From Hyphomicrobiales bacterium (GTDB lineage: Bacteria; Pseudomonadota; Alphaproteobacteria; Rhizobiales; Xanthobacteraceae), in contig JAFKKN010000007.1 in the NCBI GenBank assembly GCA_017305535.1, positions 62,001 through 126,000 of the forward strand: 64,000 bases of DNA. Reading direction: 5' to 3'. The position numbers and the translations under genes were made by a program. How positions within the stretch are numbered: the first letter of the stretch is position 1; the number at the start of each line of letters is the position of its first letter. Of this stretch, positions 27,261-42,105 are shown in pieces. The notes beneath the pieces are model-generated. The model did no database searches. It was not told where the DNA came from and saw nothing but the letters and a program-made list of their open reading frames with translations.

Positions 27261-27370
27261 TTTCGTTTCACGGACCGATTGAGTGTGATCTGAATAACAG
27301 AAGCCTTCGATGTTTCGTATTGGGGTTGAACCGGCTATTTCTAACGGTCGGTTCGAACGCGAGAGTTCCG

Positions 27371-29488
27371 ATGCGCGGTCTGAAAACTTTCGGGATCGTT
27401 CTGTCGATCCTCGTGACGCTGGCGGGATCGGCGGTCGCGGCGGACGACCCACAGCTCTGCGACAATGCGGCCAAGGACCCGGACATCGGCATTCCGGCCT
27501 GCACCCGCATCATCAGCGGCAACCAGATTCCCAATCTCGAGGCGGCCTACAACAACCGCGGTAATGCCTGGTTTCACAAGGGGCTCAACTCGTCGGCGAT
27601 CGACGACTACACCGCCGCCATCGAGCGCAATCCGGCGTTCGTCGACGCTTTCCGCAATCGCGGTTTCGTGCTGCTGCGCCAGGACGAGTTCGACCGGGCT
27701 GTCGCCGACCTCACGCAGGCCATCGCGCTCGATCCGAAATCCTCGTTCGCGTTCTATCTGCGCGGCTTCGCGCTGTTTCGCAAAGGTGAGTTCGAGGGCG
27801 CGATCAAGGATTTCGATCGCGCCATCGCGCTGAAGCACGATTACTACGCTGCCTTCGTTCATCGCGGCGATGCCTGGTACGGCAAGCGCGAATTCGACCG
27901 CGCCATTCGCGATTTCGACGCCGCGATCAAGATCGATGGGAAAAACCCCACGGCCTATTCGGAGCGGGCGCAGGTCCATATCGACAAGGGCGACTACGAG
28001 CGTGCCATCCAGAACTACAACAAGTCGATCGAACTCGATCCCAAGGACTGGCGCGCCTATAGCGGCCGCGGCGAGGCGTTGCGCCTCAAGGGTGATCTCG
28101 ACGCCGCGCTGGCGAGCCATAACAAGGCCGTTGAACTTGGGCCGCAGAACACCGACGCGCTGATCAACCGCGCCATCGCGCTCAAGGACAAGAAGCGCTA
28201 TTCGGACTCGATTTCCGACTACACCGAGGCGCTGCTGATCAACCCGAAGGAGACGCGGGCGCTGAGCAATCGCGCCGAGGTCCTGCGGCTCGACGGCGAT
28301 CTCAGCCGCGCGCTCGCCGACATCGACAAGGCCATCGCGCTGTTTCCCAATTCGGCGATGAACCATTGCCGCCGCGCCGATGTCTATCGCGACCGCGGCG
28401 AACTGGAGCACGCCGTGGCCGAATTCGGCGTCGCGATCAAGATCACCGCCAATGCGGTGTGCGCCTTCACCGGCCGCGGCATGGCCTTTGAGCAGTCCGG
28501 CCAGCACGACAAGGCCAAGGCGGATTTCGAGAAGGCGCAGAAGATGGTGCCAGAAAAGGACCCGGACCCGTCGATGGCGCGCGAGGCGCGCGCGCTGGCG
28601 AAGGTTCAACTGGCCGCGCTGGCCGAGCGTGCCAAGGCCGAAGCCCAGCGTCTCGCCACGTTGCAGGCGGCGGAAGTTGCCAAGCGCAAGGAAGAACAGC
28701 AGGAGAAGGAGCGTCAGGCCGCCGCCGAGCGCGAGCAGGCCAAGCAATTGCAGTCGGTCGCCGCGCTTGCGCCACCCAAAATCGATCAGGGCCGCCGCGT
28801 GGCGCTGATCATCGGTAATTCCGGCTATCAGAACGTGCCGCAACTGGCCAACCCGGTGCGCGATGCCGAGGCGATCGGCGAAGCGTTTCGTCAGATCGGG
28901 TTCGACAGCGTTCAGGTCGAGGACAATCTGACGCGCAGTCAAATGGTGCGCGTGCTGCGGAAATTCCGCGACGAAGCCGACCGCGCCAATTGGGGCGTGA
29001 TCTATTTCGCCGGTCACGGCATCGGCCTGAACGGTACCAATTATCTTATTCCCGTCGATGCCAGGATGGAATCGGATCGCGACGTCGAGGACGAGGCGGT
29101 GCCGCTTGACCGCATGTTGGCCGCGACCGAGGGCGCCAAGAAGCTGCGCATGGTGATCCTCGACGCCTGCCGTGACAATCCGTTCGCCAACAAGATGCGC
29201 CGCTCGGTGGCATCACGGTCGGTGACGCGCGGTTTGACCGCGATCGAGCCGGACGTCGGTACGCTGGTGGCCTATGCCGCGCGCGACGGACAGACCGCGC
29301 TCGACGGCGACGGCGCACACAGCCCGTTCGTCAGTTCGCTGCTCAAGCATCTGGTGATTCCGAATCTTGAGATCGGCATGTTGTTCCGCTTGGTGCGCGA
29401 CGACGTGCGGCAGATGACAAACCGCCAGCAGGAGCCGTTCGTCTACGGCTCGCTGCCGGGCGAGAACTTCTATTTCCTGCTTAAGTAA
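27371..29488 (+). CDS. secreted TPR protein with C-terminal caspase (C14) domain
   Basis: About 705 residues. The signal peptide (TFGIVLSILVTLAGSAVAAD) is followed by about ten TPR repeats to residue 380 (blocks such as ALFRKGEFEGAIKDFDRAIA). Residues about 395-465 form an Ala/Glu/Lys/Gln-rich coiled coil. The caspase p20-like domain starts at RRVALIIGNSGYQNVPQL (residue 475). The catalytic dyad is His549 in YFAGHG and Cys600 in LDACRDNPF, both intact. The domain ends in FVSSLLKHLV ... FVYGSLPGENFYFLLK. Caspase-like enzymes of this type cleave after basic or acidic residues; the target is unknown. Its signal peptide suggests a periplasmic location. Confidence 0.9.
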   Translation: MRGLKTFGIVLSILVTLAGSAVAADDPQLCDNAAKDPDIGIPACTRIISGNQIPNLEAAYNNRGNAWFHKGLNSSAIDDYTAAIERNPAFVDAFRNRGFVLLRQDEFDRAVADLTQAIALDPKSSFAFYLRGFALFRKGEFEGAIKDFDRAIALKHDYYAAFVHRGDAWYGKREFDRAIRDFDAAIKIDGKNPTAYSERAQVHIDKGDYERAIQNYNKSIELDPKDWRAYSGRGEALRLKGDLDAALASHNKAVELGPQNTDALINRAIALKDKKRYSDSISDYTEALLINPKETRALSNRAEVLRLDGDLSRALADIDKAIALFPNSAMNHCRRADVYRDRGELEHAVAEFGVAIKITANAVCAFTGRGMAFEQSGQHDKAKADFEKAQKMVPEKDPDPSMAREARALAKVQLAALAERAKAEAQRLATLQAAEVAKRKEEQQEKERQAAAEREQAKQLQSVAALAPPKIDQGRRVALIIGNSGYQNVPQLANPVRDAEAIGEAFRQIGFDSVQVEDNLTRSQMVRVLRKFRDEADRANWGVIYFAGHGIGLNGTNYLIPVDARMESDRDVEDEAVPLDRMLAATEGAKKLRMVILDACRDNPFANKMRRSVASRSVTRGLTAIEPDVGTLVAYAARDGQTALDGDGAHSPFVSSLLKHLVIPNLEIGMLFRLVRDDVRQMTNRQQEPFVYGSLPGENFYFLLK

Positions 29489-29943: not shown

Positions 29944-30942
29944 ATGGATGATCGCAGCAAACCGCAATCTGTTTTGCGACATCTCAACCAGGAAAAAATC
30001 GTCTTCATCCTGACGATCGTTCTCTTCATCCTGTTCTCAATCATCCTTCCGAATTTTCTCGCGGCGAACAACATCCTGTCGCTGATCCGCAGCGTGGCGG
30101 TGCTCGGCATTCTCGGGCTCGGCATGCTGATCGTCGTACTCGGACGCGGCATCGACCTGTCGCTGGTCGCCACCATGGCGATCTCGGTGGCGTGGAGCCT
30201 GCAGCTCATGAGCAACGGCATGTCGGTCGCCTCCGCCATGACCGTCGGCCTCGCGTTCGCCGTCGGCATGAGCCTGATCACCGGCGTTCTCATCGCCTAT
30301 GCGGAAATCCCGTCGTTGTTCGCGACGCTGGCGATGGCGACGTTCGTTTACGGCTTCGGCCGCGCGCATCTGATCACCGGCACCGACGTGGTCTATCTGC
30401 CGCCGAATATCGGCTGGCTGGCGCAACTCGGGCAGGGTCATGTCGCCGGCATTCCGATGCCGATCATCGTTGCGGCGGGGCTGGCGCTGATCGTGTTCCT
30501 TTTCCTGCGCTACACCAAGCCCGGACGTTTCATCTATGCGATGGGCGACAACTTCTTCACCGCGCGCACCGGCGGCGTTCCGGTGCGGCCGATCCTAGTG
30601 ATGCAGTATGTGCTGGCCGGCGGCATCGCCTTCATCGCCGGCATCGTCACCTCGACCTCGGCGCAGGCGATGAACACCCGCGTCGTCAATTCCAACATGA
30701 TCTACGACGTGATTCTGGTGGTGGTGCTCGGCGGCGTCGGCCTCAGCGGTGGTCGCGGCAACGTCCGCAACGTCATCGTCGGCACCTTGCTGATCGGCGT
30801 GCTGATGAACGGCATGACCATCATGGACATCCAGTACACCGTTCAGAACGTCATCAAGAGTCTGATCCTGCTGCTCGCCATCGTCGTCGACAGCATTCTC
30901 AACCCGCGCGACGAACAGACTGGCCAGCAGGGTGACATCTAA
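29944..30942 (+). CDS. CUT2/RbsC-type sugar ABC transporter permease
   Basis: 332 residues with about eight to ten hydrophobic helices. The family signature GIDLSLVATMAISVAWSLQL follows VLGILGLGMLIVVLGR. The ATPase-contact region is VVVLGGVGLSGGRGNVRNVI. RbsC-family permeases import ribose, xylose, other sugars and small polar compounds. First gene of the operon permease-SBP-permease fusion-lactonase-like-ATPase. It pairs with the permease part of the fusion at 32100 to make a heterodimeric channel (inference). Confidence 0.92.
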   Translation: MDDRSKPQSVLRHLNQEKIVFILTIVLFILFSIILPNFLAANNILSLIRSVAVLGILGLGMLIVVLGRGIDLSLVATMAISVAWSLQLMSNGMSVASAMTVGLAFAVGMSLITGVLIAYAEIPSLFATLAMATFVYGFGRAHLITGTDVVYLPPNIGWLAQLGQGHVAGIPMPIIVAAGLALIVFLFLRYTKPGRFIYAMGDNFFTARTGGVPVRPILVMQYVLAGGIAFIAGIVTSTSAQAMNTRVVNSNMIYDVILVVVLGGVGLSGGRGNVRNVIVGTLLIGVLMNGMTIMDIQYTVQNVIKSLILLLAIVVDSILNPRDEQTGQQGDI

Positions 30943-30987: not shown

Positions 30988-32013
30988 GTGAAAAAAATGA
31001 CTCAACTGGCGGTCGCCGCGACGGCGCTTGCCGCCTTGACGATCGGGTCCGTGGCGACGCGGGCCGAAGACAGCACCGATGCGTTCCGTGGACCGGCGCT
31101 GGCCTCGCTGAAGGGCAAGACCATCGCCTATCTGCCGATTTCGCTCGGTTTCGATCTGGCGCAGGCGTGGGGCGGCGTGGTCAAGACCGAAGCGCAGCGC
31201 TACGGCATCAACTTCAAGGCGCAGGACCCGAACTGGGTGACCTCGGCGATGGCGCAAGGCATGACCTCGCTGATCGCGGAAAAGCCGGACGTCATCGTCA
31301 CGCAGAACCCCGACGTGCAGTCGCTGGCGCGCCTTCTCAAGCAGGCTAACGCCGCCGGCATCGCCGTGATCCAGATGAACATGCAGGGCGCGGTGCAGAC
31401 CGACGCCTATGTCGGCCCCGATTTCGTAGCGCTCGGCGAGCAGGCCGCCAAGATGGTCGTGGCGAAGTGCGGCAAGGACACGCAGACGTCGCACAAGGTC
31501 TCGCTGGTCGAGGGCGTGCCGACCGGCGGCGTCAGCTTCTATCAGATCGAGGGCATCAAGAAGGTGTTCGCCGAGCATCCCGAGATCAAGGTGGTGTCGA
31601 GCCAGGCGGCCGACTGGGACGCCAGCAAGGCGCGCGCCATCACCGAGACCGTTATTCAGCAGAATCCCGATCTGTGCGGCGTCATTGACGTCTGGGATGG
31701 TCAGGCTGTCGGCACCGGCGCCGCGATCAAGCAGGCCGGCAAGCAGGGCCAGGTTTATTTCGTCACCTCCGGCGGCGGCGCGCAAGCAACCTGCGATCGT
31801 CTCACCGACGGCACCTTCTCGGCGGTCATCAACTACGATGCGCCGGGCATGGGCCGCGATGCCTGGACCGCGATCATGACCTATCTGCAGAACAAGCAGA
31901 AGGCCGGCGCGATCAAGACCCAGATCTATTCGCCGTTGCGGCTGATGACCAAGGCCGACGTCAAGGCCGGCACCTGCTGGGACCCCGAGCAGTACGCCAA
32001 GCTGCTGCGCTGA
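30988..32013 (+). CDS. CUT2-type periplasmic substrate-binding protein
   Basis: 341 residues from a GTG with a strong CAGGAGG upstream. The signal peptide (LAVAATALAALTIGSVATRA) is followed by a periplasmic-binding domain of the RbsB/type I fold: KTIAYLPISLGFDLAQAWGG, AQGMTSLIAEKPDVIVTQNP and VIDVWDGQAVGTGAAIKQAG. Ligand unknown. Second gene of the importer operon; a hairpin follows it at 32022-32049. Confidence 0.92.
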   Translation: MKKMTQLAVAATALAALTIGSVATRAEDSTDAFRGPALASLKGKTIAYLPISLGFDLAQAWGGVVKTEAQRYGINFKAQDPNWVTSAMAQGMTSLIAEKPDVIVTQNPDVQSLARLLKQANAAGIAVIQMNMQGAVQTDAYVGPDFVALGEQAAKMVVAKCGKDTQTSHKVSLVEGVPTGGVSFYQIEGIKKVFAEHPEIKVVSSQAADWDASKARAITETVIQQNPDLCGVIDVWDGQAVGTGAAIKQAGKQGQVYFVTSGGGAQATCDRLTDGTFSAVINYDAPGMGRDAWTAIMTYLQNKQKAGAIKTQIYSPLRLMTKADVKAGTCWDPEQYAKLLR

Positions 32014-32099: not shown

Positions 32100-34226
32100 T
32101 TGGCGACGACGAGCACCCTTGCAAAGCTGCGATATCGCTTTGTCCCCGATCATGTGATTGGCGAATTGCTGTCCAAGAAATGGATCGATAACGCGATCCC
32201 GTTCCTGGTGCTGCTCTGTGTCGTCAGCCTGTTCGGAAGCCTGATTCCGAATTTCTTCTCGGGCTCCAACCTCGCCATTCAGGCGCGCGAACTCGGCGAG
32301 TTCGGTCTGGTCTGCATGGCGATGATGCTTGTCATCGTGGTCGGCGGGCTCGATCTCAGCGTCGGCTCGAATTTTGCGCTCGGCAACTTCATGACGCTGG
32401 CGCTGCTCAATCTCGCCGGCTGGCCGGTGTGGCTGGCGATCCCGGCGGTGGTGCTGATCTGCGGCGGCGTCGGTTTCATCAACGGCTTCCTGATCGGCTA
32501 TCTCCGCCTGCGCGCATTCCTCACCACGCTGGTGACGCTGATCATCGTGCGCGCCATCGTCGACATGCTGCTGCTGAAATACTCCAAGGCGATGTCGGTG
32601 AGTTTCTACGACTCCACGGTCTGGGATCTGATCGGCCTCGGCGGCGTCGGCGGCGTGCCGTCGAGTTTCATCATTCTGGTTGTCGTCGCGCTGATCGGCC
32701 ACATCCTGTTGACGCGCAGCCGCCCCGGCTGGCGCGCGATGGCGATCGGCGGCTCGCGCCGCTCCGCGCATAACATCGGCCTGTCAGTGCGCGGCACCGT
32801 CTGCGCCGCCTACACCATCTCCGGCATGCTGTGCGGCCTGTCCGGCGTGCTCTATGCGGCGCGGCTCGGCGGCGCCGGCACCGATACCGGCATGGGCCTC
32901 GAGATCGCGGCGCTGACGGCGGCGGTGCTCGGCGGCAACAGTCTCGGCGGCGGGCGCGGCTCGGTGGTCAAGGCGCTGATCGGCGCGGTGATCGTGCAGG
33001 TGATGACCAACGGCGTGTTGCGCATCGGCATGAACAGCGGCTCCGGCCCGATGGTGCTGGGCCTCACGCTGTTGCTCGCGGTATTCATCGACGTGCGCTG
33101 GCTGAAGAACCGCGACAAGCTGTTGTCGAAGGTCTACGTCTCGCCGACGCTGGTTGAACTGCCGACGCCGCGCCCGACCGATGCCGAGAAGGGCGGGGCG
33201 CTGGCGTTGAACGACCGGTTGAGGGAAGTCGAGATCATCGGCCTCGACGAGGTGGAATCACCGGAAGACGTCATTCTCGACGAGAACGACTATCTCTACT
33301 GCGGCACCCGTCACGGCGACATCGTCCGCTTCTCGCCGCCGCACTACAAGGAGTGGGAAGTCTACGCTCATATCGGCGGCTCGCCGCTCGGCATGGCGTT
33401 CGACAAGGCCGGCGACCTCCTGGTGTGCGTCGGTGGCATGGGCCTCTACAAGATCGACCGCGACCGCAACGTCATCAAGGTGACGGACGAAACCAATCGC
33501 TCGGCGTTCTCGGTGGTGGACGACTCGCGTCTGCGGCTCGCCGACGACCTCGACATCGCGCCGGACGGCAAGGTCTATTTCAGCGAAGCCACGATCCGCT
33601 ACGAAATGCACGACTGGCCGGTGGACGCGCTGGAAAGCCGCGGCAACGGCCGCATCATCTGCTACGATCCCAACACCGGTAAGACCCATACGGCGGTGCG
33701 CAAGCTGGTGTTCCCGAACGGCGTGTGTCTGTCGCATGACGGGCAGGCGATCCTGTTCGCGGAAAGCTGGGGCTGCCGCATCAACCGCTACTGGATCGCC
33801 GGGCCGAAGGCCGGAACGGTGGAGCGGATGGTCGATCAGCTTCCGGGCTATCCCGACAACATCAACCGCGCCTCCGACGGTACCTATTGGTGCGCGATCA
33901 TGGGGATGCGTTCGCCGGCGCTCGACGTGGCGTTGCGGATGCCCAGCTTCCGCCGCCGCATGGCGCGGCGCATCGCGCCCGATCAGTGGCTCTATCCGAA
34001 CCTCAACATCGGCTGCGTCATCCGCTTCAACGACAAGGGCGAGATCGTCGAATCGATGTGGGACAAGGGCGCCAGCAACCACCCGATGATCACCTCGATG
34101 CGCGAGCACAAGGGCTGGCTCTATCTCGGCGGCATCACCAATAACCGCATCGGCCGCATCAGGCTTGGCGACTGGGCGGACAAGACCTGGAGCGGTTACC
34201 GCAGCTACTGGGGAGCGCGCTCATGA
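32100..34226 (+). CDS. fusion: RbsC-type ABC permease + strictosidine-synthase/SMP-30-like beta-propeller
   Basis: 708 residues in one frame from a TTG (GAGG 8 bases upstream). Residues 1-345 are a full CUT2 permease, with signature GGLDLSVGSNFALGNFMTLA and contact loop AVLGGNSLGGGRGSVVKALI. A linker of about 35 residues leads to a six-bladed propeller of the strictosidine-synthase/SMP-30 type (about 378-708): SPEDVILDENDYLYCGTRHG, FPNGVCLSHDGQAILFAESW and DQLPGYPDNINRASDGTYWC. Permease C termini of this family are cytoplasmic, so the propeller is probably inside the cell. Relatives hydrolyse lactones or act in Pictet-Spengler-type chemistry; the reaction here is unknown. It overlaps the next gene by 4 bases. 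Confidence 0.9.
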   Translation: MATTSTLAKLRYRFVPDHVIGELLSKKWIDNAIPFLVLLCVVSLFGSLIPNFFSGSNLAIQARELGEFGLVCMAMMLVIVVGGLDLSVGSNFALGNFMTLALLNLAGWPVWLAIPAVVLICGGVGFINGFLIGYLRLRAFLTTLVTLIIVRAIVDMLLLKYSKAMSVSFYDSTVWDLIGLGGVGGVPSSFIILVVVALIGHILLTRSRPGWRAMAIGGSRRSAHNIGLSVRGTVCAAYTISGMLCGLSGVLYAARLGGAGTDTGMGLEIAALTAAVLGGNSLGGGRGSVVKALIGAVIVQVMTNGVLRIGMNSGSGPMVLGLTLLLAVFIDVRWLKNRDKLLSKVYVSPTLVELPTPRPTDAEKGGALALNDRLREVEIIGLDEVESPEDVILDENDYLYCGTRHGDIVRFSPPHYKEWEVYAHIGGSPLGMAFDKAGDLLVCVGGMGLYKIDRDRNVIKVTDETNRSAFSVVDDSRLRLADDLDIAPDGKVYFSEATIRYEMHDWPVDALESRGNGRIICYDPNTGKTHTAVRKLVFPNGVCLSHDGQAILFAESWGCRINRYWIAGPKAGTVERMVDQLPGYPDNINRASDGTYWCAIMGMRSPALDVALRMPSFRRRMARRIAPDQWLYPNLNIGCVIRFNDKGEIVESMWDKGASNHPMITSMREHKGWLYLGGITNNRIGRIRLGDWADKTWSGYRSYWGARS

Positions 34227-35299
34227 CCATCGCGATGGGAGGCTGGCTCGAGCGATTCCTCGGCCGCGGCACCGCGTCGGTGACGGTGCCGCCGCTCGAC
34301 GGCGCGTTGAAGCCGAACAGCTATCTCGAAGAAGCGCCGCCCGGCTTCACGGTGGCTGCGCCGGACAACCTCGCGCTGCTCGACGGCGCGCCGGTGTGGT
34401 CGAGCGGCGCGCAACTGCTGAAGCTCAATGGCGACAAGCCATCGCCGTTCGCGACGCTGCAAAGCGATGTCACCGCGCTGGCCTGCTCCGATGCGGGGCT
34501 GATCGCGGTGGCGTGCGAGAAGCACGGCATTGCGATTCTCGATCGCGACGGCAAGCCGGCGATCACCGCGCTGCGCGATGGCGGGAAATACACCTGCGTT
34601 ACCGCGCTCGCGTTCGCCAACAACGATACGTTGCTGGTCTGCATCGGTTCGACCGACAATCCGCTATCGGCGTGGCAGCGCGATCTGCTGGAGCAGCATC
34701 GCGCCGGACAATTGCTGCGGATCGATCTGAAAAGCGGTGAGGTCAAGCTACTCGCGAACAAGCTCGCCTTTCCGAACGGCGTGCTCGCGGACAAGGACGG
34801 CAGCATCATCGTCAGCGAAAGCTGGGCGACGCGGTTGATCCGGCTCGGGTCGGACGGGCGGATGAGCGCGCAACTGATCGAGGACCTGCCGGGCTATCCG
34901 GCGCGCCTCGCGCGCGCGGCACGCGGCGGCTATTGGCTGACCGTCTTCGCGCCACGCTCGCCGCTGATCGAATTCGTGCTGCGTGAGCCGAAATATCGCC
35001 GCGCCATGATGGCGGAGGTTGCCCCCGAGAACTGGATCGCCCCGGCGTTGCGGAGCGGACAATCGTTTCACGAGCCGATGCAGGGCGGTGCGCTGAAGCA
35101 GATGGGCATCCTCAAGCCGTGGGCGCCGACGCGTTCCTATGGCCTCGTCGTCGAAGTGAACGAGAACTTTGTGCCGATCCGCAGCCTGCACAGCCGCGCC
35201 GGTGGACGCCGCCACGGCATCACCTCGGCGGTGGAATCCGGCGGGCGCCTGTGGCTGACCAGCAAGGGCGGCGACGAAGTCGTCACGATCAATCTCTAG
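34223..35299 (+). CDS. strictosidine-synthase/SMP-30-like beta-propeller protein
   Basis: 358 residues, no signal peptide. It shares the propeller signatures of the fused domain upstream: AFPNGVLADKDGSIIVSESW, EDLPGYPARLARAARGGYWL and a last blade RHGITSAVESGGRLWLTSKG. The first 45 residues are a variable extension. Start and upstream stop overlap (ATGA), showing coupled translation with the fusion protein. It probably acts in the cytoplasm on the same substrate or its first product. Lactonase or arylesterase-like hydrolysis is the best guess from the family, not shown here. Confidence 0.85.
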   Translation: MTIAMGGWLERFLGRGTASVTVPPLDGALKPNSYLEEAPPGFTVAAPDNLALLDGAPVWSSGAQLLKLNGDKPSPFATLQSDVTALACSDAGLIAVACEKHGIAILDRDGKPAITALRDGGKYTCVTALAFANNDTLLVCIGSTDNPLSAWQRDLLEQHRAGQLLRIDLKSGEVKLLANKLAFPNGVLADKDGSIIVSESWATRLIRLGSDGRMSAQLIEDLPGYPARLARAARGGYWLTVFAPRSPLIEFVLREPKYRRAMMAEVAPENWIAPALRSGQSFHEPMQGGALKQMGILKPWAPTRSYGLVVEVNENFVPIRSLHSRAGGRRHGITSAVESGGRLWLTSKGGDEVVTINL

Positions 35300-35313: not shown

Positions 35314-36819
<1,506 letters not shown>

Positions 36820-36912
36820 GCGGCCGCGCTACACATATTGATCACTTTCGCCGATAGCGCGCCCGCCTGTTCGCGGGATGCGTGGTCGCGTGCCTGAAGA
36901 TGGGAGCAATTG

Positions 36913-38040
36913 ATGAAGATCAGGGCCGCCGTTCTCGAGGAGATGAATAACACGGCGCCTTATGCGCAATCGCTGCCCTTGAGGGTGCAGGAGATTGATC
37001 TCGACGGCCCCGGTCGCGGCGAGGTGCTGATCAGGATCGCGGCGGCGGGGCTTTGCCATTCCGACCTGTCGGTGATCAACGGCGACCGGCCGCGTCCGGT
37101 GCCGATGGTGCTGGGCCACGAGGCGGCCGGCGTGGTGGAAGAAGTTGGCGATGGCGTCGACGATCTGGTGCGCGGCGATCATGTGGTCTGCGTGTTCGTG
37201 CCGAGCTGCGGCCACTGCAATCCGTGCTCGCAGGGGCGGCCCGCCTTGTGCGAGCCGGGCGCCGAGCACAACGGTAAGGGCGATCTGCTCGGCGGCGAGT
37301 TCCGCCTGCATCGCAACGGCAATCGCATTCATCATCACTGCGGCGTGTCATGCTTCGCGGAATACGCCACGGTGTCGCGCCGCTCGCTGGTGAAGGTGCG
37401 CAAGGACGTGCCGCTGCATATCGTGGCGCTGATGGGCTGCGCGGTGCTGACCGGCGCGGGCGCGGTGTTCAACGGCGGAGATGTCGGCCCCGGTCGCACG
37501 GCCGCGATTGTGGGGCTCGGCGGCGTCGGGCTCGCGGCGGTGCTGGGTGCGGCGGCCAACGGCGCGGAAACCATCATTGCCATCGATCGGCTGGAACAGA
37601 AGCTCGACCTCGCGCGCGATCTCGGCGCGACCCACACCTTCAAGGCCGACGATCCCGATCTGGTCGGCAAGGTGAAGGAGGCGACGGCCGGCGGCGTCGA
37701 TGCCGCGCTGGAATTCGCGGGCTCGGTGAAGGCACTGGAAGCGAGCTACGCCATCACACGGCGCGGCGGCACCACGGTGACGGCGGGGCTGCCGAATCCG
37801 AAAGCGATGCTGACCTTGCCGGCGGTGTCGCTGGTGGCCGAGGAGCGCACCATCAAGGGCAGCTATCTCGGTTCCGGCGTGCCGTCACGGGATATCCCGC
37901 GGTTTCTCGGCCTCTACATGCGCGGCAAGCTGCCGGTTGAAAAATTGCTCACCCACCGCATCAAGCTCGACGACATCAACGCGGGATTCGACCGCCTGCA
38001 CGATGGCAGCGCCATTCGTCAGGTGATCGAGTTCAACTAA
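36913..38040 (+). CDS. zinc-dependent alcohol dehydrogenase, medium-chain family
   Basis: 375 residues. Catalytic zinc ligands are C48 and the H69-E70 pair in GHEAAG. The structural-zinc cysteines are C99, C102, C105 and C113 in CGHCNPCSQGRPALC. The cofactor fold has GLGGVGLAAVLGAAANGA (near residue 198). It oxidises an alcohol to an aldehyde with NAD. GGGAG lies upstream of the ATG. It stands 93 bases after the ATPase and 26 bases before an aldehyde dehydrogenase, so alcohol-to-acid conversion is likely for the imported compound. Confidence 0.92.
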   Translation: MKIRAAVLEEMNNTAPYAQSLPLRVQEIDLDGPGRGEVLIRIAAAGLCHSDLSVINGDRPRPVPMVLGHEAAGVVEEVGDGVDDLVRGDHVVCVFVPSCGHCNPCSQGRPALCEPGAEHNGKGDLLGGEFRLHRNGNRIHHHCGVSCFAEYATVSRRSLVKVRKDVPLHIVALMGCAVLTGAGAVFNGGDVGPGRTAAIVGLGGVGLAAVLGAAANGAETIIAIDRLEQKLDLARDLGATHTFKADDPDLVGKVKEATAGGVDAALEFAGSVKALEASYAITRRGGTTVTAGLPNPKAMLTLPAVSLVAEERTIKGSYLGSGVPSRDIPRFLGLYMRGKLPVEKLLTHRIKLDDINAGFDRLHDGSAIRQVIEFN

Positions 38041-38066: not shown

Positions 38067-39563
38067 ATGACTCGCGTGCAGGGCATCAAGGACTATCAGT
38101 GTTTCATCGGCGGCAAGTGGAAGTCCGCGGAATCCGGTGAAACCTTTGAGTCCGTCGATCCGTTTCTCGCGAAGACATGGGCGCGGATTCCGAAGTGCGA
38201 TCAGCGCGATGTCGATCAGGCGGTCTCCGCCGCGCGCAAGGCGCTGGAGAGCGGTGCGTGGGCGGACATGCATCCTTCGCAGCGCGGGCAGCTTCTGCGC
38301 AAGCTCGGCGATCTGATCACGCGCGATGCCGATCATCTCGCCGCGACGGAGGTGCAGGATAACGGCAAGCTCTATGCCGAGATGCGCGGCCAGGTCGGCT
38401 ACATCCCGCAGTGGTACTATTACTTCGGCGGCCTTGCCGACAAGATCGAGGGCGCGGTGGTGCCGATCGACAAGGCCGACATGTTCACCTACACCCGCCA
38501 CGAACCGGTGGGGGTGGTCGCCGCGATCACGGCGTGGAATTCGCCGCTCTTGCTGTTGACGTGGAAGCTGGCGGCCGCGCTGGCGGCGGGCTGTACCATC
38601 GTGGCCAAGCCGTCGGAATTCACCTCGGCCTCGACGCTGGAATTCGCGCGCCTTGTCGAGGAAGCCGGTTTCCCGGCGGGCGTCTTCAACGTCATCACTG
38701 GCTTCGGCGCCGATGTCGGCGAAGCGTTGACGACGCATCCCGGCGTCGACAAGATCGCCTTCACCGGCGGCGAGAACTCTGGCCGCCACATCGCCCGCAA
38801 CGCCGCGCAGACCTTCAAGCGGCTGACGCTCGAACTCGGTGGCAAGTCGGCGCAACTGGTGTTTCCGGATACCGACATCGACAATGCGGTGAAGGGTGTC
38901 GTCTCCGGCATCTTCGCCGCCACCGGGCAGACCTGCATCGCCGGTTCGCGATTGCTGGTTCATGAAAGCATCCACAACGAGTTCCTCGACAAGTTCGTCG
39001 CGCTGGCGAAGACCGCGCGGATGGGCGACCCGATGGACATGGCGACGCAGGTGGGGCCGGTCACCACGCAGCCGCAGTATCAGCGCGTGCTGTCCTGCAT
39101 CGAGATGGCGCGCAACGAAGGCGCGGAATGTGTGATGGGCGGCAAGCCCGCCGACCGGCCGGAATGCGGCGACGGCTGGTTCATCGAGCCGACGGTGTTC
39201 GCCAATGTCTCCAACTCGATGCGCATCGCGCAGGAGGAGGTGTTCGGCCCGGTGCTGTCGGTGATCCGTTTTCGCGAGGACGACGAAGCCTATGCGATGG
39301 CCAACGACACCGCCTACGGCCTCGCGGCCGGCGTGTGGACCAACGATCAGCGCCGCATCTTCACGGCGGCGAAGCGGCTGCGGGCCGGATCGATCTGGAC
39401 CAACACCTATCGCGCGGTAAGCTACATGGCGCCGTTCGGCGGCTTCAAGAATTCCGGGCTCGGCCGGGAAAGCGGCCAGGAAGCGATCAACGAATATCTC
39501 GAAACCAAGTGCGTCTGGATGTCCTACGGCAAGGACGTGCCCAATCCGTTCGTGATGCGATAG
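38067..39563 (+). CDS. NAD(P)-dependent aldehyde dehydrogenase
   Basis: 498 residues, full length for the ALDH superfamily. Catalytic C290 is in GQTCIAGSR, general base E256 in LELGGKSA, and N158 in TAWNSP. The C-terminal part has PFGGFKNSGLGRESGQEAIN. It should oxidise the aldehyde made by the zinc alcohol dehydrogenase just upstream. Confidence 0.94.
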   Translation: MTRVQGIKDYQCFIGGKWKSAESGETFESVDPFLAKTWARIPKCDQRDVDQAVSAARKALESGAWADMHPSQRGQLLRKLGDLITRDADHLAATEVQDNGKLYAEMRGQVGYIPQWYYYFGGLADKIEGAVVPIDKADMFTYTRHEPVGVVAAITAWNSPLLLLTWKLAAALAAGCTIVAKPSEFTSASTLEFARLVEEAGFPAGVFNVITGFGADVGEALTTHPGVDKIAFTGGENSGRHIARNAAQTFKRLTLELGGKSAQLVFPDTDIDNAVKGVVSGIFAATGQTCIAGSRLLVHESIHNEFLDKFVALAKTARMGDPMDMATQVGPVTTQPQYQRVLSCIEMARNEGAECVMGGKPADRPECGDGWFIEPTVFANVSNSMRIAQEEVFGPVLSVIRFREDDEAYAMANDTAYGLAAGVWTNDQRRIFTAAKRLRAGSIWTNTYRAVSYMAPFGGFKNSGLGRESGQEAINEYLETKCVWMSYGKDVPNPFVMR

Positions 39564-39784: not shown

Positions 39785-40930
39785 ATGGCGTCGGATCTTG
39801 CTGGATTGCTGGTTGTGTCCATCGAGCAGGCCGTCGCCCCGACCTATCTCTCGTGCAAGCTCGCGGATGCCGGGGCGCGGGTCATCAAGATCGAGCGGCC
39901 GGAGGGCGATTTCGCCCGGCACTACGATCATCTGGTGCACGGCGAGAGCGCCTACTTCGTCTGGCTCAATCGCGGCAAGGAATCGATCTGCCTTGACCTG
40001 AAGCAGGAAGGCGAGCGCGCCATTCTGTCGGAGATGATCGCGCGGGCGGACATCTTCATTCAGAACCTCGCGCCCGGCGCCATCGAGCGGCTCGGCTTCT
40101 CGATGACGAAGCTGCGGGAGCAACATCCGCGCCTGATCACCTGCTCGATTACCGGTTATGGCGACGAAGGACCGCTGCGCGAGTTGAAGGCCTACGATCT
40201 TCTGGTGCAGGCCGAGAGCGGCCTTGCCAGCACCACCGGCAACGAATTCGGCTCGGTGCGCGTCGGCGTGTCGGTCGGCGATATCTCGGCGGGGATGACG
40301 GCGACGCAGGCGGTGTTTCAGGCGCTCTACGCGCGCGAAAAAACCGGCCATGGCCGGCATATCGCGGTGTCGCTGTTCCATTCGCTGGCGGACTGGATGA
40401 ACGTGCCGTATTTGCAGTTCACCTATGGCGGCATCACGCCGGGCAGATTCGGCCTGCATCATCCGACCATCGCGCCCTACGGCGCCTTCACATGCAGCGG
40501 CGGCCGACCGGTGCTGATCGCGATCCAGAACGAGCGCGAATGGGTGATCCTGTGCCGCGACGTTCTCGGGCGACCCGACCTGATTACCGATCAGCGGTTC
40601 AGCAACAACGATAACCGCGTCAGGAACCGCGAGGCGCTCGACGCGGAGATCGTGCCGATTTTCCTCGGCATGACGCGGGAGCAGGCGATCGAGGTGCTGA
40701 GCGCGGCGCGTCTCGCCTATGGCCGGGTGAGTTCGCTGGACGATCTCGCGGTGCATCCGCAGAATCGCTACCTCGATGTTGAAACGCCGTCCGGCCCGGT
40801 GCGCCTGCTGGCTCCCGGCGTCAAGGTGGATGGCGAGACGCTGACCGCCGGGCGCGTGCCGGCCGCGGGCGAACACAGCGAGGCGCTGCGCCGGGAATTC
40901 GCGCCGAAAGGGGCGAACGTCGGCGCGTAA
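39785..40930 (+). CDS. class III (CaiB/BaiF) CoA-transferase
   Basis: 381 residues. Family features are KIERPEGDFARHY, NRGKESICLDLKQEGERAI, ITGYGDEGPLRELKAYDLLV (with the catalytic Asp of AYDLLVQAESGL) and GHGRHIAVSLFHSLADWM. These enzymes move CoA between acids such as formate/oxalate, carnitine or mesaconate/succinate. It probably activates the acid made by the upstream dehydrogenases, using an acyl-CoA as donor. Acceptor and donor are unknown. GGAAGG lies upstream of the ATG. Confidence 0.9.
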   Translation: MASDLAGLLVVSIEQAVAPTYLSCKLADAGARVIKIERPEGDFARHYDHLVHGESAYFVWLNRGKESICLDLKQEGERAILSEMIARADIFIQNLAPGAIERLGFSMTKLREQHPRLITCSITGYGDEGPLRELKAYDLLVQAESGLASTTGNEFGSVRVGVSVGDISAGMTATQAVFQALYAREKTGHGRHIAVSLFHSLADWMNVPYLQFTYGGITPGRFGLHHPTIAPYGAFTCSGGRPVLIAIQNEREWVILCRDVLGRPDLITDQRFSNNDNRVRNREALDAEIVPIFLGMTREQAIEVLSAARLAYGRVSSLDDLAVHPQNRYLDVETPSGPVRLLAPGVKVDGETLTAGRVPAAGEHSEALRREFAPKGANVGA

Positions 40931-41019: not shown

Positions 41020-41163
41020 TTGCGAACATGATCAATTCCAGTCACTTAGTACGCGATTCGACCCGGTCTCATGGGCCGGAGGCGCAAACCGTTTCGCACT
41101 TTGCGGCTTCATGCCTTAAAGTGCGGCAGCGCTTTTCGGGCGATCACATCATGTTGGATCTAT

Positions 41164-42105
41164 ATGGATCTCAGGCAGCTCCGATACTTCATTGCGATTG
41201 TGGAGCAAGGTTCGTTTTCCAAGGCCGCTGAATTTCTCAATGTCGCGCAGCCCGCGCTGAGCCTGCATGTCCGCAATCTGGAGTCGGAGTTGGGTTGCGC
41301 GCTGCTGTTTCGCAGCCCGCAAGGCGTGGTCGCGACCGAAGCCGGCCAGATCCTGGTGCGCAACGCGCGCATCATCATCGATCAGTTCTCGGTCACCCGG
41401 CAGCAAATCCAGGAGCACGAGGCGGAGCCGTCCGGCGAGGTGCGCCTGGGTCTGCCCGGCACCATCAGCCAGATTCTGGCGGTGCCGCTGATCCTCGAGG
41501 CGCAGCGGCAGTTTCCGAAGGTGAAATTGCGGATCGCGGAGGCGATGAGCGGCTTTGTGCTGGAATGGATCCGCGAGGCGCGGGTCGATCTCGCGGTGCT
41601 CTACACCTCGGTGTCGGACCGCACGCTGACCTCGCTGCCGGTGCTGTCCGAGGAATTGTGGCTGCTGGGGCCGATGAAAGCACCCGCCGGTGTCGAGCCG
41701 CCGGGCGCCGGGCAATGCTCCTATCAGCAGGTCAGCAAATTGCCGCTGGTGTTGCCGAGCAGCACGCACGGCCTGCGCGCGCTGCTGGAAAAGGAAGCCG
41801 CCGACCACGCGCTGCAACTCAACACGGTGTTCGAGGTGGATTCCTACGCCAACATCAAAAGCATGGTGGAGATCGGCGCGGGCTATTCGATCCTGCCGTT
41901 CAATTCCATCGCGCGCGAGGTGCAGAGCGGGCGGCTGCTGGCATGGCGGATCGGGAAGCCGAAATTGCAGCGCAGCGTCAATCTGGTCTGCCCGGCGGAT
42001 CGCCCTGTGACGCGCGCGGTGTCATCGATCGAGGCGCTGTGCCGCACCGTGCTGCTCAACCTTGCGTCCACCGGCAAATGGAACGGCGTCAAGGTGATCA
42101 AGTAA
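41164..42105 (+). CDS. LysR-family transcriptional regulator
   Basis: 313 residues. The N-terminal HTH is clear (MDLRQLRYFIAIVEQGSFSK, FLNVAQPALSLHVRNLESEL, GCALLFRSPQGVVATEAGQI). From about residue 90 comes the periplasmic-binding-like effector domain. The start at ATG 41164 gives the standard LysR N terminus. Co-directional with the upstream catabolic module, so it probably controls it; the effector could be the imported compound or a CoA intermediate (inference). Confidence 0.92.
   Translation: MDLRQLRYFIAIVEQGSFSKAAEFLNVAQPALSLHVRNLESELGCALLFRSPQGVVATEAGQILVRNARIIIDQFSVTRQQIQEHEAEPSGEVRLGLPGTISQILAVPLILEAQRQFPKVKLRIAEAMSGFVLEWIREARVDLAVLYTSVSDRTLTSLPVLSEELWLLGPMKAPAGVEPPGAGQCSYQQVSKLPLVLPSSTHGLRALLEKEAADHALQLNTVFEVDSYANIKSMVEIGAGYSILPFNSIAREVQSGRLLAWRIGKPKLQRSVNLVCPADRPVTRAVSSIEALCRTVLLNLASTGKWNGVKVIK

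What the first reader, a model, noticed from the sequence alone, without database searches (positions are those of the whole stretch)
32100..34226. ABC permease fused in frame to a strictosidine-synthase/SMP-30-like propeller
One 708-residue frame joins a complete CUT2 permease (signature GGLDLSVGSNFALGNFMTLA) to a six-bladed propeller (FPNGVCLSHDGQAILFAESW). The family normally has separate proteins. The join suggests that the transported compound is passed directly to an enzyme or sensor on the cytoplasmic face.
Basis: partly seen in the sequence, partly recalled or inferred. Interest (0 to 1): 0.75.

Follow-up and report, generated by a model that had tools for sequence, protein, structure and literature searches.

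The report
Nutrient importer with built-in propeller enzyme
A group of proteobacteria carries a nutrient pump whose membrane channel is fused to an enzyme-like wheel, with a second, apparently inactive wheel encoded beside it, which suggests a pump that processes its cargo as it enters the cell.

Summary
Window 32100-34226 is one intact 708-aa frame: a CUT2-type ABC permease (BPD_transp_2, aa 68-327) followed by a strictosidine-synthase-like/SMP-30 six-bladed propeller (aa 366-708). It is not an assembly error: the genome has three copies, and 50 of 397 sampled genomes of the order have a full-length fused copy. All 19 close propellers found in a phylum-wide sample, and all 18 close permeases in a class-wide sample (17 of full fusion length), lie in such long frames. 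The fused propeller keeps the SMP-30-type metal triad in 70 of 70 relatives; the second propeller has lost its Asp in 68 of 68. Charge pattern, helix count, cysteines and the unanchored partner point to the cytoplasm, whereas unfused relatives carry an N-terminal anchor and should be periplasmic. Best reading: an importer with a tethered metal hydrolase (lactonase/esterase-like) at its cytoplasmic exit. Catalysis, substrate and hand-over are inferred. New variant of a known kind.

The parts
29944..30942 (+). permease 1 (CUT2, BPD_transp_2), 332 aa; presumed partner half of the membrane channel
   Evidence: ORF; Pfam E 5.8e-24; same place in the module in relatives
30988..32013 (+). periplasmic binding protein (Peripla_BP_4), 341 aa; exactly 4 Cys in 69 of 69 relatives; ribose-type contact positions replaced
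32100..34226 (+). fusion protein, 708 aa: CUT2 permease + SSL/SMP-30-like propeller
32100..33134 (+). permease part (aa 1-345): ten membrane helices in my reading of the model, coupling helices 208-225, Lys/Arg-rich end 331-345
33135..33194 (+). linker (about aa 346-365), mostly variable, no hydrophobic segment
33195..34223 (+). fused propeller (aa 366-708) starting with SSL_N; Foldseek best hits are strictosidine synthases, then paraoxonase, Drp35, lactonase, SMP30
33264..33266 (+). codon of E389, taken as equivalent of SMP30 Glu18 (metal ligand), 70 of 70
33717..33719 (+). codon of N540, taken as equivalent of SMP30 Asn154, 70 of 70
33855..33857 (+). codon of D586, taken as equivalent of SMP30 Asp204, 70 of 70
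34080..34082 (+). codon of H661: invariant in 70 fused propellers, replaced by Leu, Tyr, Val or Phe in 19 unfused relatives
34223..34226 (+). ATGA overlap of fusion stop and start of second propeller; a 4-base ATGA/GTGA overlap is possible in 57 of 68 loci
34223..35299 (+). second, stand-alone propeller, 358 aa, no signal or anchor seen; metal Asp replaced in 68 of 68, Asn kept in 22 of 68
35314..36819 (+). double ATPase (RbsA/AraG-like), 501 aa; Walker A intact in half 1, GLIGSGRT in half 2; LSGGNQ signature in half 2 only
36910..38040 (+). zinc alcohol dehydrogenase, part of the neighbourhood of the window's subfamily
38067..39563 (+). aldehyde dehydrogenase
39785..40930 (+). CaiB-type CoA-transferase; best NCBIfam models are dicarboxylate CoA-transferases, all below cut-off
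41071..42105 (+). LysR-type regulator, possibly of this cluster

Best explanation
A CUT2 ABC importer in which one of the two permease halves carries, on its cytoplasmic end, a metal-dependent six-bladed propeller of the strictosidine-synthase-like/SMP-30/paraoxonase group, and a second, catalytically degenerate propeller, probably made by translational coupling, sits with it as a pseudoenzyme partner. Substrate is handed by the binding protein to the permease pair, moved by the double ATPase, and meets the fused propeller at the exit, which probably hydrolyses it (ring-opening of a lactone or ester cleavage). In the window's subfamily the product could then pass through alcohol dehydrogenase, aldehyde dehydrogenase and CoA-transferase, as expected for lactone -> hydroxy acid -> semialdehyde -> dicarboxylate -> CoA ester. 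Shown by sequence: fusion, module, metal-triad positions, degenerate partner, their conservation. Supported by prediction: cytoplasmic side. Inferred: that it is catalytic, the lactone/ester substrate, the pairing of the propellers and the hand-over.
For: All five genes of the module (permease 1, binding protein, fusion, second propeller, ATPase) are found in 63 of 63 loci of 13 kb or more, from Alpha- and Betaproteobacteria and a Pantoea plasmid. Metal ligands E389, N540, D586 invariant in 70 of 70, matched by motif to SMP30 Glu18/Asn154/Asp204 (passages of PMC3551927). D475, R477 and H661 are invariant in the fused clade and absent, and N589 not found among the common residues, in 19 unfused relatives. 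Foldseek: strictosidine synthases E 4e-15, then paraoxonase, lactonase RPA3624, SMP30. The partner propeller lacks the metal Asp in 68 of 68 yet follows 68 of 70 complete fusions; of the other two, L066 has a piece cut by the contig end and L049 ends right behind the fusion. 4-base overlap in 57 of 68. Side: Lys/Arg-rich tail after the last helix and ten helices; BtuC-like importers, RbsAC2B included, described with 20 helices per dimer (passages of PMC11466899); no hydrophobic N-terminus in 68 of 68 partner propellers; Cys counts 4-9 and odd in 27 of 70 fused propellers against exactly 4 in 69 of 69 periplasmic binding proteins and 0-1 in 19 unfused relatives. Neighbours: alcohol dehydrogenase 24 of 63, aldehyde dehydrogenase 28 of 63, any of nine CoA-ester enzymes 32 of 63 fused loci, against 0, 0 and 1 of 20 control CUT2 loci.
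Against: No activity, substrate or localisation was measured. AF2 confidence of the fusion is only moderate (pLDDT 71.6, pTM 0.55), and helix 8 (267-279) is short, so the helix count and with it the side are not certain. The metal site was assigned by motif, not by superposition. Strictosidine-synthase-like proteins need not be hydrolases. Neighbour genes vary: the Pantoea locus lies beside dihydroxyacetone-kinase-type sugar genes, the Paracoccus locus near xylose isomerase, and many of the 63 loci had none of the sought enzymes, so one substrate class cannot be claimed for all. The neighbour test used query proteins taken from fused loci and the loci are related, so it favours them; without the four loci that supplied CoA-enzyme queries other than the window's own, 28 of 59 remain. 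Sugar markers did not separate the sets either (2 of 63 against 2 of 20).
Confidence: 0.5

Rival explanations
1. Sensor or gate: the two propellers bind the imported compound or its product on the cytoplasmic side and regulate transport (trans-inhibition, as regulatory domains do in other ABC importers; recalled) or signal to the regulator, without catalysis.
For: A degenerate second propeller is conserved; LysR, GntR or other regulators lie in several clusters; transporter-sensor fusions exist elsewhere, e.g. SLC5/STAC kinases (start of the abstract of PMC9100948 in the listing).
Against: The full metal triad plus further residues are invariant in 70 of 70 fused copies, more than ligand binding alone would seem to need; no signalling domain is attached.
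Confidence: 0.25
2. The propeller is on the periplasmic side and acts before transport, the permease having an odd number of helices.
For: Unfused relatives have an N-terminal anchor, clear in 18 of 19, and are predicted to face the periplasm; helix 8 in the model is short.
Against: Positive charges at the permease's C-end, partner propeller without anchor or signal in 68 of 68, odd and variable cysteine numbers; 20 helices per dimer in BtuC-like importers.
Confidence: 0.1
3. The propellers are only scaffolds that tether downstream enzymes or stabilise the complex.
For: Propellers are common interaction platforms (recalled); the second propeller has lost its metal site.
Against: The active-site residues of the fused propeller are invariant; downstream enzymes differ between clusters.
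Confidence: 0.12
4. Assembly or frameshift artefact.
For: One relative (L079) has the fusion split over two frames.
Against: 56 full-length fused places without stops in the order search and three copies in the own genome.
Confidence: 0.01

Closest known systems
CUT2 importers (RbsABC, AraFGH, and the BtuC-like RbsAC2B of Bacillus subtilis)
   Same: BPD_transp_2 permease, Peripla_BP_4 binding protein, double ATPase with one degenerate site (PMC11466899 passages)
   Different: Two different permeases, one with a C-terminal propeller; a further propeller gene in the operon; all NCBIfam CUT2 scores far below the curated cut-offs
Strictosidine-synthase-like (SSL) propellers: plant STR and TGW6, and anchored bacterial SSL proteins
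   Same: SSL_N, Str_synth and SGL domains; same fold; metal triad shared with 19 of 19 unfused bacterial relatives
   Different: Membrane anchor replaced by a permease; predicted to have changed side of the membrane; more cysteines; D475, R477, N589 and H661 invariant only in the fused clade
SMP-30/gluconolactonase, paraoxonase, Drp35, RPA3624 lactonase
   Same: Six-bladed fold and metal ligands
   Different: No permease attached; 11-15% identity in the Foldseek alignments
Cu/Zn-superoxide dismutase fused to a propeller lactonase in Deinococcus (PMC12362111, listing and start of abstract only)
   Same: Propeller lactonase used as a fusion module in bacteria
   Different: Not a transporter
SLC5/STAC sensor kinases (PMC9100948, listing and start of abstract only)
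   Same: Transporter domain fused to a functional domain
   Different: Symporter and kinase; no enzyme-type propeller

Membership tests
CUT2 ABC importer permease | BPD_transp_2 domain over the family cut-off | tested here: met
   E 4.5e-33, 115 bits against cut-off 26.8
CUT2 ABC importer permease | operon with Peripla_BP_4 binding protein and double ATPase | tested here: met
CUT2 ABC importer permease | ten membrane helices, both ends in the cytoplasm | tested here: inconclusive
   AF2 model read as ten helices at moderate confidence; charge pattern agrees
CUT2 ABC importer permease | single-domain protein of about 320-350 aa | tested here: not met
   708 aa with propeller
CUT2 ABC importer permease | sugar transport | not testable with these tools
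   ribose-type contact positions (recalled as D89, R90, R141 of RbsB) are mostly replaced in the binding protein
SSL/SMP-30 propeller enzyme, fused copy | six-bladed propeller | tested here: met
   Foldseek to strictosidine synthases, best E 4e-15, TM 0.75-0.79 by target length
SSL/SMP-30 propeller enzyme, fused copy | metal triad Glu/Asn/Asp | tested here: met
   70 of 70 by motif and alignment; ligands from PMC3551927
SSL/SMP-30 propeller enzyme, fused copy | N-terminal anchor as in unfused bacterial SSL proteins | tested here: not met
   replaced by the permease
SSL/SMP-30 propeller enzyme, fused copy | lactonase or esterase activity | not testable with these tools
   no assay
SSL/SMP-30 propeller enzyme, second propeller 34223-35299 | metal triad | tested here: not met
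   Asp replaced in 68 of 68, Asn kept in 22 of 68; the Glu position was not assigned
SSL/SMP-30 propeller enzyme, second propeller 34223-35299 | six-bladed fold | tested here: met
   AF2 pLDDT 83.7, Foldseek E 9.8e-15 to strictosidine synthase

The most novel reading that the evidence does not exclude
A vectorial importer: cargo leaves the permease into a covalently attached metal hydrolase, capped by its pseudoenzyme partner, and is ring-opened or cleaved on entry, so that uptake and first catabolic step form one act. This would be an ABC importer working like group translocation, using a propeller that moved from the periplasmic to the cytoplasmic side when a permease replaced its membrane anchor.
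Probability: 0.25. Interest if true: 0.85.

Novelty: new variant of a known kind. Interest (0 to 1): 0.62.

Why it matters
ABC importers are usually thought to release cargo unchanged. A conserved module in which the permease itself carries an enzyme-type domain, together with a conserved pseudoenzyme partner, makes coupling of transport and catalysis directly testable, and gives a handle on CUT2-type systems whose substrates are perhaps not sugars. In the plasmid records looked at, annotation shows only one of the two halves (SMP-30 family protein or permease), so the chimera is easy to miss.

Tried and rejected
Artefact was considered and rejected. Phmmer of the permease half against solved structures gave nothing at E 0.01. 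A second structural aligner was not available. Literature searches for the fusion: (strictosidine synthase + ABC transporter permease + fusion; beta-propeller + ABC transporter permease + fused + lactonase; ABC transporter + permease + fused to + gluconolactonase domain) returned 0 papers; others (6 papers; 37 papers, 12 listed) returned papers whose listed titles and abstract starts concern other things; none of these was opened. So 'not found in print' rests in an open-access library only. Substrate hints from solved homologues of the alcohol and aldehyde dehydrogenases were too general to use. Papers opened: PMC3551927 and PMC11466899, passages only.

Rows dropped: of the loci, truncated, split or duplicate fusions were left out (L056, L059, L074, L076 truncated; L079 split; L002-L014, L024, L026 and L035 partial, unfused or replaced by larger pieces of the same places, L089 unfused), leaving 70 fusions and 68 partner propellers. 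19 of the 23 unfused propellers listed were fetched. The structure jobs used 32 of the 70 fusions and 30 of the 68 partners. In one search only the binding-protein alignment is used; the permease-1 and ATPase alignments there came from truncated pieces. A first listing of module genes hid some genes by its overlap filter; one search repeats the count without it. The neighbour test used 63 of 70 candidate fused loci (13 kb or more); its 20 control CUT2 loci, one per genome, were picked by hand from the list (30 of 61 genomes had matches), one of them only 11.9 kb long.

Full report
What is there. The frame at 32100-34226 is real and intact, 708 aa. Pfam finds BPD_transp_2 at 68-327, SSL_N at 366-411, SGL at 426-602 and Str_synth at 482-568, all above the curated cut-offs. 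The NCBIfam sugar-permease models match the first half but far below their cut-offs, so no specific sugar permease is assigned.

It is a conserved fusion. The own genome has full-length copies at C7 (window), C1 (57% identical) and C8 (50%). In 397 genomes sampled from the order, 53 have a match at 1e-60; 56 of the 60 listed places, in 50 genomes, are full-length fusions without stops, three are partial pieces in two genomes (G176, G393), and one is an unfused permease at 42% identity (only the two best candidates per genome were scored, so copies are undercounted). A scan of GTDB genomes gave 40 loci, 35 with a complete fusion, including Bradyrhizobium, Rhizobium, Shinella, Gemmobacter, Variovorax and Bordetella hinzii, and plasmids gave 16 records, 15 covering at least 80% of the query, among them Pantoea sp. 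At-9b. Searching 385 genomes of the class with the permease half alone, the 18 listed matches at 1e-45 (10 genomes; five candidates scored per genome) all lie in long frames, 17 of 710 aa or more and one, a partial match, in 559 aa. Searching 398 genomes of the phylum with the propeller half alone (32 genomes with a match; five candidates scored), the 55 listed places fall into 19 fused (54-100% identical, frames of 707 aa or more), 23 unfused (31-41%, frames of 354-520 aa) and 13 partner propellers. In a tree of 70 fused, 68 partner and 19 unfused propellers each group is one side of a branch (support 98, 100 and 99, quick method), so a single fusion event is enough; some long branches make the deeper placement unsure.

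It belongs to a module. All five genes (permease 1, binding protein, fusion, second propeller, double ATPase) are present in 63 of 63 loci of 13 kb or more, in that order where I listed them and in the eight annotated plasmid regions that I opened, one of which runs off its record within the ATPase. In L062 permease 1 is spread over two frames, and in L079 the fusion is. One same-class genome, G1053, has at least five copies, three of them in tandem. Of 70 complete fusions 68 have the second propeller; of the other two, L066 has a piece cut by the contig end and L049 ends right behind the fusion. Fusion and second propeller can overlap by four bases (ATGA or GTGA) in 57 of 68 loci, which suggests translational coupling.

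Active site. In human and mouse SMP30 the metal is held by Glu18, Asn154 and Asp204 (passages of PMC3551927). By motif position I take E389, N540 and D586 as equivalents; they are invariant in 70 of 70 fused copies and in 19 of 19 unfused relatives. This rests on motifs and alignment, not on a superposed model. D475, R477, N589 and H661 are invariant in the fused clade; in the 19 unfused relatives D475, R477 and H661 do not occur and N589 is not among the four commonest residues. In the second propeller the Asp is Ala, Gly or Ser in 68 of 68 and the Asn survives in 22 of 68, although the fold is predicted well (pLDDT 83.7). It is therefore best seen as a pseudoenzyme partner; that the two pair is inference.

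Which side. The AF2 model of the fusion (pLDDT 71.6, pTM 0.55) can be read as ten membrane helices with coupling helices at 208-225 (the assignment is mine). Positive charges sit at the N-end, the 4-5, 6-7 and 8-9 loops and, strongly, right after the last helix. That pattern puts the C-end in the cytoplasm, as does the 20-helix architecture given for BtuC-like importers including RbsAC2B (passages of PMC11466899). The second propeller has no hydrophobic N-terminus in 68 of 68 (best 17-residue window 1.52 on the Kyte-Doolittle scale). Cys counts in the fused propeller vary from 4 to 9, odd in 27 of 70, while the periplasmic binding protein has exactly 4 in 69 of 69. Of 19 unfused relatives, 18 have a clear N-terminal hydrophobic anchor and one (L141) a weak one; 18 have no Cys in the part after the anchor and one has a single Cys. 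Together these suggest that the propeller changed sides when a permease replaced its anchor. The weak point is the short helix 8.

Context. In the window's own subfamily the module is commonly followed or flanked by alcohol dehydrogenase, aldehyde dehydrogenase, CaiB-type CoA-transferase and LysR. Elsewhere the neighbours include acyl-CoA ligase, 3-hydroxyacyl-CoA dehydrogenase and acyl-CoA dehydrogenase (own C8 copy), MaoC and CoA-ester lyase (Paraburkholderia), fatty-acid-oxidation genes (Paracoccaceae strain La 6) and HMG-CoA reductase (Shinella); but also dihydroxyacetone-kinase and triose genes (Pantoea) and xylose-isomerase genes (Paracoccus). Of 63 fused loci, 32 have one of nine CoA-ester enzymes, 24 the alcohol and 28 the aldehyde dehydrogenase, against 1, 0 and 0 of 20 control CUT2 loci; three sugar markers were rare in both (2 of 63, 2 of 20). 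The query proteins came from fused loci and the loci are related, so the difference is overstated; leaving out L081, L124, L126 and L127, which supplied CoA-enzyme queries, 28 of 59 remain. In the binding protein the ribose-type Asp-Arg pair reads Asn in 61 and Asp in 8 of 69, followed by Met, Leu or Asn and never Arg, and both Arg of the ARxRG stretch are mostly replaced (alignment, counts; the meaning of these positions in RbsB is recalled). I take this to mean that many of these systems carry acids, lactones or esters rather than ordinary sugars; it is not shown.

Mechanism. The most economical reading is an importer with a tethered hydrolase at its exit. In the window, lactone opening followed by alcohol and aldehyde oxidation and CoA transfer would make a coherent route, similar in logic to gamma-butyrolactone breakdown (recalled). 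A sensor or gate is the main rival.

Novelty. Both halves are known families; the fusion, the conserved pseudoenzyme partner and the side change were not found in print in the searches named under Tried and rejected. Annotation in the plasmid records names only one half. I call it a new variant of a known kind.

Noticed in passing
30988-32013: The binding protein family of this module has exactly four cysteines in 69 of 69 members and an invariant Trp followed by Asp in 66 of 69; ribose-type contacts are mostly missing, so the ligand may not be a sugar.
   Followed up: partly
L219 1-19901 and L220 1-16100 (G1053 contig C25): Three complete copies of the five-gene module in tandem in one genome, at least five fused copies in all.
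   Followed up: partly
L143 2206-7165: An unfused, anchored SSL propeller lies head to head with a CUT2 binding protein-ATPase-permease operon, 1 of 19 unfused loci looked at: a possible unfused counterpart of the module.
   Followed up: partly
35314-36819: Double ATPase: half 1 has Walker A but LGAAQ where the signature is expected, half 2 has LSGGNQ but GLIGSGRT in place of Walker A, leaving one composite site.
   Followed up: no
27320-29488: Frame with TPR-like repeats and a caspase-like C-terminal part, upstream of the module (read from the translation, not searched).
   Followed up: no
L080 1804-3081: 425-aa frame without any Pfam match, between an FAD-binding protein (which it overlaps slightly) and the C1 copy of the module.
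   Followed up: no
L079 7881-9961: Pseudophaeobacter leonis copy of the fusion lies in two overlapping frames; decay or sequencing error, not resolved.
   Followed up: no
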